Part shown: one piece after another, positions 10,540-63,960 of the stretch
How positions within the stretch are numbered: position 1 is the first letter of the stretch
How the letters are laid out: the number at the start of each line of letters is the position of its first letter
NCBI RefSeq assembly: GCF_003946085.1
Contig: NZ_RHOB01000002.1
Span: 62,001 to 126,000 of the forward strand
Direction of reading: 5' to 3'
Length of the DNA: 64,000 nt
From: Levilactobacillus angrenensis
GTDB lineage: Bacteria; Bacillota; Bacilli; Lactobacillales; Lactobacillaceae
The notes under the pieces: generated by a model
Database searches by the model: none
Seen by the model: the letters and a program-made list of their open reading frames with translations, nothing else
Told to the model about the DNA's origin: nothing
Program-made: the position numbers and the translations under genes

Positions 10540-12801
10540 CTACTTTTCAACCCGTTTGATTGGTGCAAAGGCGGCTAACAACCGCTTAACACCCTGCTCT
10601 GGAAAGGCAATGTCGAGTTCGGCATCTTCACCGGTCCCGTTGACCTTGACGACGGTCCCAATGCCCCACTTTTTGTGGCTAGCCTTGTCACCAACGCCCC
10701 AGCTAACCTTGCCAGCCCCGGTGCCAGTCGGTTCACTGACCCGCCCCGTCTTACCGTGGTAAGGGGTGGCTACCGCACCAGCGGTCCGACGCGCAAATGG
10801 GACGTCGCGGCGACTCGGTGTCAACCCAGACTTGGTTTCACTGTAGTCTAAATGCAGCAGTTCCGGTTCGATTTCCGTAACGAAGCGAGATTGCGGGTTC
10901 GTTTGCCGGCGACCGTACAGCATCCGTGAATAAGCGTTGGTCAAATACAACTTGTCTTGGGCCCGCGTAATGCCGACATAAGCCAAGCGTCGTTCTTCTT
11001 CCAACTCATCGTCTTCAAGCATGGCCCGTGACAGTGGGAAAATCCCCTCTTCCAGACCCATCAAGAAGATTACAGGGAATTCTAGTCCCTTAGCGGCGTG
11101 CAACGTCATCAAGGTAACTTCGGCGGGTTCTTCTTCAACGTCGTCTTGTGCAGAAACTAAGGCCAAATCAGCCAGGAATTCCACTAAGCGTTCTTCCGTT
11201 TCGTCATGGTCCGCTTTGTCCCAGTCGTCGTCAAACTTCTGCGTCACGGATAAGAATTCTTGAATGTTTTCGATCCGCGTTTCGGCTTCCAAGTTCTTAG
11301 CAGCAACGGCCTTGAGTGCCGCCATGTAGCCGGTCTTATCCAACAATTCATTGGTGATTTCCGACACCGTCATGGTCGCTGCCTGGTCCTGGATGTGCTT
11401 TAAGGTCATCCCGAATTTCTCCATGGCATTGCGAATGCGGGCGCCCAAATTCGTTGCCAACGCGATATTTTGTGTGGCCTCGAGTTCCGTCCAATCATTC
11501 ATTTCGGCAAAGTCACGCAGCTTTTCGACACTGGTAGCCCCAATGCCCCGCTTGGGTTCGTTGATGATACGTTCCAGGCTCATGGAATCGGCGGGATTGG
11601 CCACCAATGTCAGGTAGGCCAACACGTCTCTGATTTCCTTACGGTCGTAGAACTTGTGGCCCCCGACCATGGTGTACGGCACGTTGGCCTTGACCAGCGT
11701 TTCTTCAATCACCCGGGATTGGGCGTTGGTCCGGTACAAAATGGCGAAATCGCCGTAACCGCGGTGGTGTTGTTCCCGTTCCTCTTGAATCTTAGCCACG
11801 ACGTAATGGGCCTCATCGTTTTCATTTTGCCCGCGGTAATACGAGATCTTATCGCCCTCGGGATTGTCCGTCCACAGGTCTTTTTTCTTCCGGTTGACGT
11901 TCTTTTGGATGACGTCGTTGGCGGCCTTCAAAATCGTCTTGGTCGACCGGTAATTTTGTTCCAGCAAGGTCACGTGGGCGTTGGGGTAATCATGTTCAAA
12001 GTTCAAAATATTTTCCATGTTGGCCCCTCGCCAACCGTAGATACTCTGGTCACCATCCCCGACAACACACAGATTACCGTGCTTTTTTGCCAGCAAGTTG
12101 ACCAACGTATACTGTGCGTCGTTGGTATCCTGGTATTCATCAACGTGGATGTACTGGAATTTTTCTTGGTAGTAACCCAACACGTCGGCATCTTGCTTGA
12201 ACAGCTTAATGGTCAACATGATCAGGTCATCAAAGTCCATGGCCTGGTTAGCCTGCAGCTCACGTTGATAACTTTCGTAGACCGTGGCCACCGTCGTTTC
12301 AAACGGATTGCCCGCAGCTTCACGCATCATTGCCGGCGTCTGCAGGGCGTTCTTCGCGTTGGAAATTGCCCCTAAGACCGACCGGGGGTCAAATTTTTTC
12401 ACGTCCAAGTTCTGTTGGCGCAAGACCCGCTTGATCAGCGTGCGTTGTTCGCCGGGATCGGCAATCGTGAAGGCCCGGTTGTAACCGAGTTTATCTGCGT
12501 CCCGCCGTAAAATGCGGACACACAGGGCGTGGAACGTGGAGACCCACACGTCGTTGCCGTCCGGTCCCAGTAATTTGATGACCCGTTCGCGCATTTCCTT
12601 AGCGGCCTTATTGGTAAAGGTAATCGCCAAGATCCGCCACGGCATCACGTTGTTGTGTTCAATCAGGTAGGCGACCCGGTGCGTTAACACCCGGGTCTTC
12701 CCACTACCGGCACCCGCCAATACCAACAGGGGCCCTTCCGTCTGAAGGACGGCCTCCGTTTGCTTATCGTTCATGCCAGTTAACAATTCTTCTCCTGCCA
12801 C
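10540..12801 (-). CDS. pcrA: ATP-dependent DNA helicase PcrA (UvrD/Rep family)
   Basis: 3'-5' superfamily 1 helicase for nucleotide excision repair, rolling-circle plasmid replication and removal of proteins from DNA. The motifs appear in order: Q motif MNDKQTEAV, Walker A AGAGSGKT, Ia ITFTNKAAKEM, II VDEYQDTN, III GDGDQSIYGWRGA, IV LEQNYRS, V LMTLHAAKGLEF and VI YVGITRAQ. The C-terminal tail with GDKASHKKWGIGTV is the RNA-polymerase-interacting region typical of PcrA. The start is taken as GTG 12801, which gives the family's short leader before MNDKQ; internal TTG and ATG starts are possible. First gene of pcrA-ligA-camS. Confidence 0.97.
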   Translation of the reverse strand: MAGEELLTGMNDKQTEAVLQTEGPLLVLAGAGSGKTRVLTHRVAYLIEHNNVMPWRILAITFTNKAAKEMRERVIKLLGPDGNDVWVSTFHALCVRILRRDADKLGYNRAFTIADPGEQRTLIKRVLRQQNLDVKKFDPRSVLGAISNAKNALQTPAMMREAAGNPFETTVATVYESYQRELQANQAMDFDDLIMLTIKLFKQDADVLGYYQEKFQYIHVDEYQDTNDAQYTLVNLLAKKHGNLCVVGDGDQSIYGWRGANMENILNFEHDYPNAHVTLLEQNYRSTKTILKAANDVIQKNVNRKKKDLWTDNPEGDKISYYRGQNENDEAHYVVAKIQEEREQHHRGYGDFAILYRTNAQSRVIEETLVKANVPYTMVGGHKFYDRKEIRDVLAYLTLVANPADSMSLERIINEPKRGIGATSVEKLRDFAEMNDWTELEATQNIALATNLGARIRNAMEKFGMTLKHIQDQAATMTVSEITNELLDKTGYMAALKAVAAKNLEAETRIENIQEFLSVTQKFDDDWDKADHDETEERLVEFLADLALVSAQDDVEEEPAEVTLMTLHAAKGLEFPVIFLMGLEEGIFPLSRAMLEDDELEEERRLAYVGITRAQDKLYLTNAYSRMLYGRRQTNPQSRFVTEIEPELLHLDYSETKSGLTPSRRDVPFARRTAGAVATPYHGKTGRVSEPTGTGAGKVSWGVGDKASHKKWGIGTVVKVNGTGEDAELDIAFPEQGVKRLLAAFAPIKRVEK

Positions 12802-12845: not shown

Positions 12846-12962
12846 AAAAAACATACGTTCTGCTGGAACTCTCACCGATATTTTAAAAGAAATTTCCGTG
12901 ACCGGTTACACAAAAATTCCAATAGCAACTTAACCAAAGATTGAAAGCTGAATTAATGTCTT

Positions 12963-13266
12963 GACTCCCGGAGCGACAGCGTTTTGTCCACCAGAAATAC
13001 TGTGTTAGCCAAAGACTAGTTGCCAAAACAGCCGCTACCTGGGGCTAAGCCGCTTGTTACTGGTGCGCACTTTTGTAGCCGAGAGTTCGCCAAATATGGG
13101 TTCAGCCGTGGGAGTTGTCTTAGTGGCGTGGTTCATGCCGCTTAGACAACTGGCGTCTTTGAGACGCGACCTTCGGCTCAAAGCGAGGCCGAGACCGTTT
13201 CTCAGGCTCGGTCCGGTCCGCCCACCGCGTTCCAACCCATATTTGGCGAACGGTAGGCGGCCAGCC
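12963..13266 (+). repeat. Dispersed structured repeat, copy B (linker plus full module)
   Basis: This copy has the conserved linker (12963-13072) followed by a full cloverleaf-like module (13071-13266). The outer stem is a perfect 18-bp match, 13085-13102 with 13234-13251. Internal hairpins: 13113-13151; CTTTGAG/CTCAAAG (13157-13163 with 13177-13183); CCGAG/CTCGG (13189-13193 with 13207-13211). The linker is nearly identical to the reverse complement of 28698-28792. It fills most of the gap between pcrA and the purK-like gene. Confidence 0.9.
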
Positions 13267-13284
13267 TTTAGCAGCTTAACCGAC

Positions 13285-13326
13285 AAACGCACTCAATCAG
13301 CCAGTCACTGGTGATCAAGTGCGTTC
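13285..13326 (-). terminator. Hairpin after the purK-like gene
   Basis: AACGCACT (13286-13293) pairs with AGTGCGTT (13318-13325), extended inward by a few imperfect pairs, 18 nt past the stop of the purK-like gene. The T tail is short (TTT), so it may be a weak terminator. Confidence 0.5.
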
Positions 13327-13343: not shown

Positions 13344-14501
13344 TTAGTCTTGATTCGTCGTCTCGTCGTCACTGGGCGTCGTCCAAATGGCCGTATCATC
13401 CAATTGGTCCAGTAGCGTCTTGACTGCTGGTCCTTGGACGGTAACGTGACCCATCACGTCTTCATCGGCTTGCTTGCGCAAATGGTAGAACGTGAAGTCC
13501 CAGTTGGGCTTGATCTGCCATTGCGTCCGAATCGCCGTCAGCTGCTTGACCGTGAAGTTCACGGTCACGGCCGGCGTCAACAGTTGCGGTGTCGCCAGGG
13601 GTAACCCCGCTACGGCGCGCATGTGTTCCGCAAACTCATCAACGGTCCCAGCCGCCGCAAAGACGTACCCCGTTTCGCTTGGCGCAGGCACAATCTTCTT
13701 CACGTAAATGGCGCCACTTTGTGTCAGGTAGAAGGACACCTCAAACACACCCACGTAAGACACGTTCTTAGCGACTTCGCTGGCAATGCGGTGAATCTCA
13801 CTGGCCACGGCGTCATCAATTTCAGTCGGTACCCAGACGCGTTGTGGTCGATCGTCTACCGAGTGGATCTCGGTGATGGGGAAGGACTGTTGATTGCCTT
13901 GCGCATCCCGCGCCACCAGAATGGAGAACTCCCGGTCATAAGCAATCTGTGACTCTAAAATATAAGTCCCCCAGTCCAACAACCCGGCCGCTTTGGCAAT
14001 ATCGGTCTGCGTCTTGATGACCAACTCCCGGCCGTGGGACCATTCCTTTTGAATCGGCTTTAAAACACACGGGTAGCCAATCGAGTTGACGGATTGATAG
14101 ACGTCATCCAAATTAATGATCGTCGCGTACGGGGCAATGTTAACGTTCAGTTGTTCAAAGAAAGCCCGCTCGAGCAAGCGATCTTGCATGATTTCCAGCA
14201 TGTCACTGCCCTGCGGAATCCGGGTGAATTGCGCCAGAAATTTGACGACGTCCGTGCTCACTTGGTCCGAGTCGTACACGATGGCCGCGCAACTCTCAGC
14301 AAAGTGCTGGAGCTTGTCGCGGTCCTTGCTAGTACCGACAGCCTTGAAGTCTGCTAATTGTAATGCCTCACTCGTTTCGTCGGCACCGTATGCCCCGACG
14401 CGTAGCCCCATTTTTCGAGCCGTGGTAACCAACATCGCGGCGTTGGCACTATTACCAATCACCCCAACAGTATCTCCAGGATATAAGACCGTGTTCGCCA
14501 A
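13344..14501 (-). CDS. PurK-like ATP-grasp protein with altered active-site motifs
   Basis: Protein of 385 residues with the domain order of N5-CAIR synthetase (PurK): an N-terminal Rossmann-like part (TVGVIGNSANAAMLVTTARK), an ATP-grasp core (GYPCVLKPIQKEWSHGRELV, residues about 138-157) and a small C-terminal domain. PurK would carboxylate AIR in purine synthesis. However, the strongly conserved family signatures are changed: the GGGQLG loop reads GNSANA, and the catalytic NEIAPRPHNSGH segment reads KKIVPAPSETGY. No purE or other pur gene is adjacent; the downstream gene is the purine salvage gene xpt. It starts with TTG (14501) after GGGAG. It may be a degenerate or repurposed paralogue. 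Confidence 0.75.
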   Translation of the reverse strand: MANTVLYPGDTVGVIGNSANAAMLVTTARKMGLRVGAYGADETSEALQLADFKAVGTSKDRDKLQHFAESCAAIVYDSDQVSTDVVKFLAQFTRIPQGSDMLEIMQDRLLERAFFEQLNVNIAPYATIINLDDVYQSVNSIGYPCVLKPIQKEWSHGRELVIKTQTDIAKAAGLLDWGTYILESQIAYDREFSILVARDAQGNQQSFPITEIHSVDDRPQRVWVPTEIDDAVASEIHRIASEVAKNVSYVGVFEVSFYLTQSGAIYVKKIVPAPSETGYVFAAAGTVDEFAEHMRAVAGLPLATPQLLTPAVTVNFTVKQLTAIRTQWQIKPNWDFTFYHLRKQADEDVMGHVTVQGPAVKTLLDQLDDTAIWTTPSDDETTNQD

Positions 14502-21102: not shown

Positions 21103-21335
21103 AGTGATGCCCCCTTACAACAAGTGATAACTCATACTGCTATGATAGCATTTTTCTGGTATCTAAGCGCTACCAATCACGGTAAACCAGCTTGTTTTTG
21201 CCAATTAAATTGGTCGCAAGCCACTTACTCCTGAGCTCCTCTGGCGACATATGTATTCAGCCTATCACCAAAGATGTCAGTTCAGGCTAACAAGGACTTG
21301 GACTTAACAACACGGTGACTGACAAACACTACCGC

Positions 21336-21524
21336 AGCCGTGAGTTCGCCAACTATGGGTTCAGCCGTGGGAGTTCCCTTAGCGGTGGCCTTTGCCGCTT
21401 AGGAAACTGGCGTCTTTGAGACGCGGGCTTCGGCTCAAAGCGAGGCGCCGAGACCGTCCTATGGCTCGGCCCGTCCGCCCACCGCGTTCCAACCCATAGT
21501 TGGTGAACGGTAGGCGGCCAGCAA
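21336..21524 (+). repeat. Dispersed structured repeat, copy C (full module)
   Basis: Full module between cydB and cydD. The outer stem pairs 21344-21361 with 21491-21508 (one G-T pair). Internal hairpins: 21373-21408 (AGTTCCC type), CTTTGAG/CTCAAAG around 21414-21440, and GCCGAG/CTCGGC around 21447-21470. The remainder of the gap (21103-21335 and 21525-21587) shows only faint similarity to the linker seen in other copies (for example TGTCCA and GTGAAACCC near 21537) and no gene. Confidence 0.88.
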
Positions 21525-28582: not shown

Positions 28583-28639
28583 CTCTGGTTATTAAATATG
28601 GTGTAAAAATTAGTCGTTTACAGCTTCGTAGTTTGAGCT

Positions 28640-28697
28640 GTCCGCCTACCGTCCGCCAACTATGGGTTGAACCCATATTTGGCGGACTCCCGGCTAC
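28640..28697 (-). repeat. Dispersed repeat, copy D (interior deleted)
   Basis: Both ends of the module are kept (GCCTACC side at 28641-28650 and CCGGCTAC at 28690-28697), but the interior is gone. The outer arms 28651-28668 and 28670-28687 face each other across one base, forming a 37-nt near-perfect palindrome with one mismatch. The linker continues on the right at 28698. Confidence 0.85.
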
Positions 28698-28792
28698 AAA
28701 AGTGCGTACCAGTAACAAGCGGTTTAGCCCCAGGTAGCGGCTGTTTTGGCAACTAGTTTTTTGACTAACACAGTATTGCTGATGATCGTCAC
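28698..28792 (-). repeat. Conserved linker of the dispersed repeat (D/E)
   Basis: The reverse complement is nearly identical to 12990-13076 of copy B, including TGTGTTAG, ACTAGTTGCCAAAACAGCCG, CTACCTGGGGCTAA and CGCACTTTTGTAGCC. It joins copy D to copy E. Confidence 0.88.
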
Positions 28793-29036
28793 TCTTCGCC
28801 GGAGGCAGTCAGAGATGGCCCCAGCTGTGTCGATGGTGTTGGCTGAGGTCTTTTCTCCGCCTATAGCGTGGCGCGACTTGAGAGACTGGCGGTTTATGCC
28901 AGGCTTTCAAGCGAACCGGAAGCCCGTTTCTCAGGCTGGAGGTGTTCCCCAGCAGGCGGAATTTCTGACTGACGCAGGCTCCTGGTTTGACTAATTTTAG
29001 TGAACCGGATACTGTCATTGCGGGAATTACCGCGTT
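28793..29036 (+). repeat. Dispersed repeat, divergent copy E with shared end segment
   Basis: Module in the opposite orientation to D. The outer stem CAGTCAGAGA (28806-28815) pairs with TTTCTGACTG (28962-28971, one mismatch). Inside are a CTTGAGAG hairpin at about 28880-28914 and AGCC/GGCT around TTTCTCA at 28921-28937; hairpin 2 of the full copies is absent. The flank 28972-29036 (GACGCAGGCTC, ACTAATTTTAGTGAA, GGGAATTACCGC) recurs, reversed, at 63754-63822. Confidence 0.75.
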
Positions 29037-29057
29037 AATGCTATTTTCAATCTTTAG

Positions 29058-39804: not shown

Positions 39805-39935
39805 GTTAAATTCCTCCATAAATCTGTGTTTGTCTGACACCAAGTAAACTTTCCGGGGCTTATCGTGGGGCAAACAATACCAACAACCATAATACAAAGT
39901 TTTTCCCATAAAGTCAATGATTGTTTGCCCCTTAA
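39805..39935 (-). promoter_or_regulatory. Probable L13 leader (autoregulatory 5' UTR of rplM-rpsI)
   Basis: The region holds a perfect 12-bp stem, GGGGCAAACAAT (39867-39878) with ATTGTTTGCCCC (39920-39931), enclosing about 40 nt and not followed by a T run, so it is not a simple terminator. Firmicutes carry a known L13 leader at this position; the assignment here rests on location and stem, not on a model search. Confidence 0.6.
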
Positions 39936-63753: not shown

Positions 63754-63880
63754 TGGTAATTCCCGGAACGGCAATATTCTGTCCACTAAAATTAGTGAAA
63801 CCCAGAGCCTGCGTCAACCAGAGATTCCAGCGGGTTGGTGATTATCAGCACCATTGGTTAGTCAAAGGCTGATTGCCAAT
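63754..63880 (+). repeat. Dispersed repeat, copy G (end segment and linker, no module)
   Basis: GGTAATTCCCG, CCACTAAAATTAGTG, AGAGCCTGCGTCA, GATTATCAGCA and GGTTAGTCAAAGG-CTGATTGCC match, in order, the reversed 29036-28972 flank of copy E and then the linker at 28792-28750. The structured body between them is missing, as also in copy B. 63881-63960 shows no feature. Confidence 0.7.
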
Positions 63881-63960
63881 CCTTACGCCATCAGTCGCGT
63901 AGTGACAATGTTTCTAGCTGATTTTCATCTTTCGACCTTTAGCTCAAATATGGTTGCATA

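What the first reader, a model, noticed from the sequence alone, without database searches (positions are those of the whole stretch)
13085..13251. The repeat folds as a closed stem over three hairpins
In copy B the outer stem (13085-13102/13234-13251) encloses hairpins at 13113-13151, 13157-13183 and 13189-13211, a cloverleaf-like layout. Copies A and C keep the same order. Simple REP or BIME elements are one or two hairpins; this four-stem layout is more like a structured ncRNA or a replicative hairpin element.
Basis: partly seen in the sequence, partly recalled or inferred. Interest (0 to 1): 0.65.

Follow-up and report, generated by a model that had tools for sequence, protein, structure and literature searches.

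The report
Structured RNA-like core of mobile repeat
The predicted fold is real: it is the conserved, RNA-like folded core of a small mobile DNA repeat that occurs in dozens or more copies in many lactic acid bacteria, and what the folded RNA does is still unknown.

Summary
The outer stem and all three hairpins exist where stated and covary across 50 diverse copies (97% of cells pair; 79% in shuffles, at most 48% when slid 1-3 columns). A nearly invariant inner helix makes five helices. G.U far outnumbers A.C on the strand given, pointing to an RNA-like single strand rather than a cruciform. The interpretation needs widening: window 13075-13263 is one module ("unit A") of a mobile element. Full copies (~640 bp) read TIR - unit B inverted - unit A - TIR; 17 of 22 copies with both ends have 6-9 bp target duplications (2 of 462 swapped controls), relatives have empty sites, and the genome holds 138 TIR ends. 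The focal copy (12934-13271) is a deletion derivative with an 8-bp duplication (one mismatch). Nine elements of another genus share the TIR and unit A, eight of them the inverted second unit. The unit-A model matches 33 of 35 genomes of the genus (Levilactobacillus, inferred) and 88 of 301 of the family. No Rfam family fits; my paper searches found no description. Best reading: a MITE-like transposon whose modules act as folded RNA. No transposase, promoter signal or transcript was found; the RNA step is inferred.

The parts
12926..12933 (.). left target-site duplication CAACTTAA
   Evidence: right copy is CAGCTTAA, 1 mismatch in 8
12934..13271 (+). focal element copy, a deletion derivative of the ~640-bp element
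   Evidence: comparison with the full-length copy L020 and TIR scan; ORFs overlapping it are 85 and 86 aa
12934..12947 (+). left terminal inverted repeat CCAAAGATTGAAAG, 2 mismatches to the consensus CTRAAGGTTGAAAG
13075..13263 (+). unit A, the structured module (175.1 bits to covariance model R1)
   Evidence: this copy is one of the 50 rows R1 was built from
13085..13102 (+). outer stem P1, 5' side
   Evidence: 17 of 17 pairs have changes on both sides in the family
13234..13251 (+). outer stem P1, 3' side
13221..13228 (+). inner helix P2, 3' side
13113..13151 (+). hairpin P3
   Evidence: 10 of 12 pairs with changes on both sides; 12 of 12 canonical in the window
13154..13185 (+). hairpin P4 (CUUUGAG/CUCAAAG)
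   Evidence: 9 of 11 pairs with changes on both sides
13187..13214 (+). hairpin P5 with the conserved AGACCG ... GGCU sides
   Evidence: 6 of 10 pairs with changes on both sides; 7 of 10 canonical in the window
13265..13271 (+). CCTTTAG, read as what is left of the right TIR
   Evidence: short, so inferred from the flanking duplication
13272..13279 (.). right target-site duplication CAGCTTAA
6847..7035 (-). second copy of unit A
   Evidence: 157.7 bits to R1
21334..21520 (+). third copy of unit A
   Evidence: 174.9 bits to R1
28603..28761 (-). fragments of a unit A and its upstream part, one half of a deleted composite element
28795..28984 (+). unit B (second subfamily), head to head with the unit A fragments
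   Evidence: 18.6 bits to R1; lies in a match to L020's left arm
29044..29057 (-). TIR of that composite element (CTAAAGATTGAAAA)
63761..63942 (+). matched part of a deletion derivative that kept only terminal sequence (right TIR at 63929-63942)

Best explanation
The feature is the module (unit A) of a non-autonomous, MITE-like DNA transposon of Lactobacillaceae. The intact element is about 640 bp in this genome and about 540 bp in another genus: a 14-bp TIR (CTRAAGGTTGAAAG), unit B on the minus strand, a spacer, unit A on the plus strand and the TIR again, flanked by a target duplication of mostly 7-9 bp. SHOWN: TIR/TSD anatomy, empty sites, deletion derivatives, head-to-head modules, and the covarying fold of each module. 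INFERRED: a transposase supplied in trans moves the element by its TIRs, and the modules act as folded RNA. The second inference rests on the excess of G.U over A.C pairs in both modules although they lie on opposite DNA strands, and on unit A being the best-kept part of the copies in this genome. I think the folded RNA most likely serves the element itself (tolerance of read-through transcription, or control of its mobility) rather than each neighbouring gene; that last step has no direct evidence.
For: Mobility: TIR pattern (up to 1 mismatch) in 67 forward and 71 reverse places of the genome against 2 and 3 for the reversed pattern. TSD of at least 6 bp in 17 of 22 elements with both ends found (16 of 7-9 bp), against 2 of 462 swapped-flank controls. 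Deletion derivatives of 277-470 bp with TSDs. Nine elements of another genus with the same TIR, picked as close TIR pairs: TSD of 7-10 bp in 8 of 9 (no control run), unit A in 9 of 9, an inverted second unit in 8 of 9. Fold. Strand: G.U+U.G 102 against A.C+C.A 23 for A, 52 against 2 for B; A folded on the other strand gives 18 against 44. The 30 copies of this genome give 204 against 35. Constraint on copies: in 8 of 9 orthologous A pairs of two species, columns invariant in other copies changed at 12 of 446 sites (2.7%), variable columns at 63 of 635 (9.9%), fourfold sites at 14.7%.
Against: No transposase with these TIRs was found: of the far-apart TIR pairs read, one spans ordinary genes (L139), one an IS3-type insertion (L285) and one host-type genes (L286) (gene types named by eye); TIR listings were truncated. 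No promoter enrichment upstream of the units and no transcript data. The reverse-strand control is clean for A only: B folded on the other strand gives 33 G.U against 18 A.C, at a weaker energy. In G021 and G012 I saw no shared TIR beside the units I looked at (by eye), so mobility is shown only for the own genome and G336. Unit B is not the best-kept part of the own-genome copies. One-sided changes in orthologous copies are hardly selected against: 117 of 247 keep the pair against 37% for random changes. Intergenic DNA outside units (6.5%) changes less than variable unit columns.
Confidence: 0.72

Rival explanations
1. Units A and B are host-domesticated RNA elements: each intergenic copy works in the mRNA or ncRNA in which it is transcribed (message stabilisation, attenuation, protein binding). 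Transposition is only how they once spread.
For: In situ constraint at family-invariant columns between orthologous copies. Copy-specific outer stems (A, n = 22: -19.6 against -11.2 kcal/mol for swapped partners; B, n = 50: -22.9 against -12.3). None of 75 units lies inside a called gene. 29 of 37 units of G021 pair with a unit at the matching place in G012.
Against: No clear orientation bias toward neighbouring genes. No promoter signal. One-sided changes that break a pair are barely depleted. Sites are reshuffled by indels and an inversion between two species whose blocks are 92-97% identical. Gene conversion between copies could also give low change at invariant columns.
Confidence: 0.3
2. 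The fold matters as DNA: a hairpin or cruciform recognised by a transposase or replication protein, as in REPINs or IS200/IS605 ends.
For: Inverted, paired modules (19 of 27 neighbouring pairs closer than 1 kb are head to head). Strong folding on both strands. B keeps more G.U than A.C on either strand.
Against: A cruciform predicts no G.U/A.C asymmetry. One single DNA strand cannot carry both inverted modules in sense orientation, yet both show the asymmetry on their own strand. TIRs with mostly 7-9 bp TSDs do not fit HUH single-strand transposition, which by recalled knowledge leaves no TSD.
Confidence: 0.15
3. The covariation is mostly mutational: quasi-palindrome template switching and gene conversion keep arms complementary without selection.
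For: Between orthologous copies, double changes exceed independence (57 observed, 47 keeping the pair, against about 14 by my estimate) while single breaks are nearly free.
Against: Template switching makes perfect Watson-Crick arms, not an excess of G.U on one strand. It does not explain invariant loops or helix P2, nor low change at invariant columns.
Confidence: 0.1
4. A free-standing ncRNA gene family with its own promoter and terminator.
For: Size and fold of unit A.
Against: No upstream promoter enrichment: unit A sense 4.67, antisense 4.54, shuffled 4.38; unit B 4.48, 4.37, 4.40. TIR/TSD anatomy. Copy numbers far above those usual for ncRNA genes (recalled).
Confidence: 0.07

Closest known systems
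[quoted passage not shown] ERIC, NEMIS/Correia, RUP (examples recalled; review PMC10969869 seen in a search listing only)
   Same: short, no transposase gene, TIRs, TSDs of mostly 7-9 bp, intergenic where examined, high copy number, internal deletion derivatives, movement presumably in trans
   Different: two paralogous multi-helix modules in opposite orientation, each with compensatory covariation; no autonomous parent found
REPINs / REP-RAYT (PMC3116915, PMC8266576, PMC3733652: start of abstract seen in a search listing)
   Same: inverted pairs of extragenic folded units in large copy number, kept across species
   Different: units of about 185 nt with five helices instead of one 20-40 bp palindrome; TIRs and TSDs present; a RAYT partner was not tested
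HEARO/omega RNA and reRNA of IS200/IS605 elements, and IS110 bridge RNA (recalled)
   Same: a conserved structured RNA carried by a transposable element
   Different: no ORF of 90 aa or more inside; no Rfam match above gathering; TSDs of mostly 7-9 bp; modules in inverted pairs
Stem-loop repeat families in bacterial genomes (PMC2267715: passages seen)
   Same: dispersed intergenic repeats with a shared fold
   Different: the one mention of Lactobacillus in its main text is L. johnsonii; the passages seen describe no family like this

Membership tests
MITE (non-autonomous DNA transposon) | terminal inverted repeats | tested here: met
   138 TIR matches against 5 for the reversed pattern
MITE (non-autonomous DNA transposon) | target-site duplications | tested here: met
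   17 of 22 against 2 of 462 in swapped flanks; 8 of 9 in another genus, no control
MITE (non-autonomous DNA transposon) | no transposase gene inside | tested here: met
   no ORF of 90 aa or more inside the full-length element L020, longest 82 aa
MITE (non-autonomous DNA transposon) | related autonomous element sharing the TIRs | tested here: inconclusive
   none found; far-apart TIR pairs read held ordinary genes or an IS3-type insertion; listings truncated
REP/REPIN | inverted pairs of folded extragenic units | tested here: met
   19 of 27 close pairs head to head in two largely orthologous stretches
REP/REPIN | short single-hairpin REP unit (20-40 bp) | tested here: not met
   unit of about 185 nt with five helices
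REP/REPIN | RAYT (TnpA-REP) gene in the genome | not tested
   no search made
Any Rfam 15 family | match to a covariance model | tested here: not met
   window at gathering: only an L13 leader elsewhere; 12900-13300: none up to E = 5; an A+B+B stretch: none up to E = 5; in L020 a few matches inside the element at E 1.3-5.5, far below gathering, and Atu_C9 (E = 1e-4, below gathering) outside it at 1877-1918
Structured RNA | compensatory base changes above controls | tested here: met
   G.U asymmetry
Structured RNA | transcribed as RNA | not testable with these tools
   no RNA-seq; no promoter enrichment

The most novel reading that the evidence does not exclude
A new class of RNA-assisted transposon: two divergently oriented structured RNAs (A and B) encoded by the element are working parts of its mobility or its control, for example bound by a transposase or host factor, with folds kept by selection in a family of elements whose unit-A model matches 13 of 40 Lactobacillaceae genera sampled.
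Probability: 0.2. Interest if true: 0.92.

Novelty: new variant of a known kind. Interest (0 to 1): 0.7.

Why it matters
Bacterial MITEs are usually seen as decaying leftovers with simple ends (recalled view). Here the interior of such an element carries two elaborate folds with compensatory change; the unit-A model matches 33 of 35 genomes of the genus, and two related species hold about one unit per 4 kb in the 320 kb examined. Rfam 15 has no family that fits. If the RNA is functional, it links a transposon to a structured RNA outside the known omega-RNA and bridge-RNA systems. If the folds merely make insertions harmless, that is a testable account of how a repeat can fill intergenic space in a small genome.

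Tried and rejected
(1) Rfam at gathering and at permissive thresholds: nothing at or above gathering for unit A or B; inside L020 a few chance-level matches at E 1.3-5.5. (2) Plasmid and phage collections, blastn: no match for the core in either, nor for the full element in plasmids (the full element was not run against phages). (3) Autonomous partner: TIR pairs further apart than a MITE were fetched. One spans ordinary genes, by eye a two-component system (L139), one an IS3-type insertion (L285), one host-type genes (L286); a fourth stretch (L287) was fetched and not read. Of 25 loci with a TIR end but no close partner in the listing, 24 matched the element (one over only 36 bp) and one did not, with a 136-aa ORF beside it. 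No family search for transposases was run. (4) Dedicated promoter: no enrichment. (5) Gene-orientation bias: none clear. (6) The single-sequence MFE for the middle of the unit was set aside for the covariation structure. (7) The one search counts for B units were discarded, because the A model does not align B properly. (8) search for related loci with the neighbouring 753-aa ORF in viral contigs gave no relative. (9) Paper searches listed no description of this repeat (top rows only); passages of PMC2267715 were read, everything else is known from listings.

Rows dropped: for A1, 23 of 129 core hits (score below 40) and 1 at a locus edge, then duplicates (105 to 96), then L045_1583 and L059_1915, then anything at least 91% identical to a kept row, leaving 50. 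For one search, 1 of 76 hits (33 nt). For one search, two contig-edge copies and L144 were not examined, and 12 of 34 examined loci lacked one TIR end. For one search, 1 of 29 ortholog pairs. For one search, 1 of 9. For A3, one truncated row of 44.

Full report
1. THE OBSERVATION. The region folds far better than chance (-93.7 kcal/mol, z = -9.47, 0 of 200 shuffles). The reverse strand also folds well (z = -7.73), so one fold says little. I therefore collected copies. A blastn search of the own genome scored 40 of 232 candidates and returned 43 matches. A search of 40 genomes (the own one included) found the core in 18, all in one genus. From 129 profile hits I kept 50 sequences below 91% mutual identity as alignment A1. 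RNAalifold gives 57 pairs, 44 with a change on both sides in at least one sequence. With that structure 97.0% of cells pair, against 79.1 +/- 0.5% when partners are shuffled and 32-48% when partners are slid by 1-3 columns. The outer stem varies on both sides in 17 of 17 pairs, hairpin P3 in 10 of 12, P4 in 9 of 11, P5 in 6 of 10, and the inner helix P2 in 2 of 7. The structure was derived from this alignment, so the slid control flatters it, and related rows make the shuffle control lenient.

2. RNA OR DNA. On the strand as written, unit A has 102 G.U and U.G cells against 23 A.C and C.A; the complementary alignment, folded on its own, gives 18 against 44 and a weaker energy (-61.6 against -81.6 kcal/mol). 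Unit B has 52 against 2; its complement, with another fold and a weaker energy (-27.3 against -44.7), gives 33 against 18, so that control is clean for A only. The 30 copies of this genome give 204 against 35, without a reverse control. A cruciform would show no such bias, and because A and B lie on opposite DNA strands of one element, no single DNA strand explains both. This points to RNA, as inference.

3. THE ELEMENT. Comparing eight copies with all 30 fetched showed that the core is part of a longer repeat of about 640 bp, with internally deleted versions. Its ends are CTRAAGGTTGAAAG inverted repeats, present 67 + 71 times in the genome against 2 + 3 for the reversed pattern. Of 34 loci examined, 22 had both ends; 17 of these have a target duplication of at least 6 bp (16 of 7-9 bp), against 2 of 462 swapped flank pairs. 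Joined flanks of seven insertions were searched in the 35 genomes of the genus. At L003 the flanks in G003 lie about 730 bp apart, so that site looks occupied there. For the other three sites no such match was in the truncated list. The L015 alignment in G003 runs plainly across the junction; that of L011 in G192 has a 6-base gap just past it. The focal copy is 12934-13271: a left TIR, unit A, then a deletion down to the last bases of the right TIR, between CAACTTAA and CAGCTTAA. It lies between two minus-strand ORFs, 10540-12801 and 13344-14501. The window holds four further remnants.

4. TWO MODULES. It gave 76 hits: 22 strong (126-195 bits, unit A) and 54 weak. Aligned, nearly all of the weak ones form a second subfamily, unit B. 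The left arm of the full element in the own genome is a unit B in inverted orientation. Of 27 neighbouring pairs closer than 1 kb, 19 are head to head, 2 tail to tail and 6 in tandem (after dropping one 33-nt hit; the two stretches are largely orthologous, so not independent). None of 75 units lies inside a called gene, though two overlap an ORF call by 28 and 116 nt. Flanking-gene orientations relative to the unit were, for A: 11 both antisense, 5 both sense, 3 converging on it, 3 diverging; for B: 14, 13, 16 and 10, so no clear bias (a simple gene caller of my own). Units have copy-specific outer stems (A -19.6 against -11.2 kcal/mol for swapped partners; B -22.9 against -12.3), and several B units sit on a stem that has the sequence of the A outer stem.

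5. SPREAD. In G336, of another genus, nine ~540-bp elements, chosen as close TIR pairs, were read. Each carries the same TIR and a unit A, eight an inverted second unit, eight a 7-10 bp duplication, although matched parts are only about 73-83% identical to L020. TIR, B and A thus travel together.

6. SELECTION ON COPIES. Between the two close species I compared 28 of 29 orthologous unit pairs, with single-sequence folds. Paired sites changed at 7.5% and loops at 11.1%. There were 57 double changes, 47 keeping the pair, where independence would give about 14 (my estimate). One-sided changes kept the pair in 117 of 247 cases, against 37% for random changes. With the consensus structure the A pairs show 9 of 9 double changes kept, and 10 kept, 15 broken and 12 repaired one-sided changes. 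Template switching in quasi-palindromes could make such doubles without selection. Against a purely mutational account, columns invariant in other copies changed at 12 of 446 sites, variable ones at 63 of 635, and fourfold sites at 14.7%; intergenic DNA outside units changed at 6.5%. Gene conversion could add to that. So constraint on single copies is likely but modest.

7. MECHANISM. The element is best read as a MITE-like transposon moved in trans through its TIRs (anatomy shown; enzyme not found). The modules are kept as folded RNA (covariation and strand bias shown; transcription not shown). I favour a role for the element itself over a role for each neighbouring gene, because gene orientation, promoters and single breaks show little selection, whereas the TIR-B-A-TIR design recurs in two genera. 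This ranking is judgement.

8. KNOWN OR NEW. No Rfam family fits, the plasmid and phage collections gave no match to the core, and the listings of seven paper searches showed no account of it; papers outside that open library were not searched. It meets the MITE tests of TIR, TSD and lack of a transposase gene; an autonomous parent was not found. It fails the REP test on unit size and the Rfam test. The new part is the pair of covarying modules.

Noticed in passing
window 39823-39881 (-): Rfam match to the ribosomal protein L13 leader (45.1 bits, gathering 44).
   Followed up: no
G021:C9 and G012:C2, junctions listed: At one site (j9) a pair of A units in G021 corresponds to a single, inverted copy of one of them in G012; other sites swap B for A or gain tandem B units. 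The units look like recombination hot spots.
   Followed up: partly
L285 (G015:C1:811800-814400): An IS3-type insertion (ORFs of 225 and 297 aa, named by eye) lies between two TIRs of a copy.
   Followed up: partly
G336 (genus g52): One genome of another genus holds 138 TIR ends and R1 matches far stronger (E about 1e-38) than the other matching genomes of its genus (E about 1e-11 to 1e-19), which suggests horizontal transfer or a recent burst.
   Followed up: partly
G187 and G022: Two genomes of the genus, 99% complete, have no R1 match; comparing their gene content with the other 33 could point to a partner protein.
   Followed up: no
window 13035-13292 (-) and 13054-13314 (+): Two ORFs of 85 and 86 aa run through the hairpins on both strands; probably by-products of the GC-rich inverted structure, but they could be annotated as genes by mistake.
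   Followed up: no
L305 (G000:C1:97073-97086): One TIR match has no element beside it but a 136-aa secreted-looking ORF (by eye); chance match or an eroded end.
   Followed up: partly
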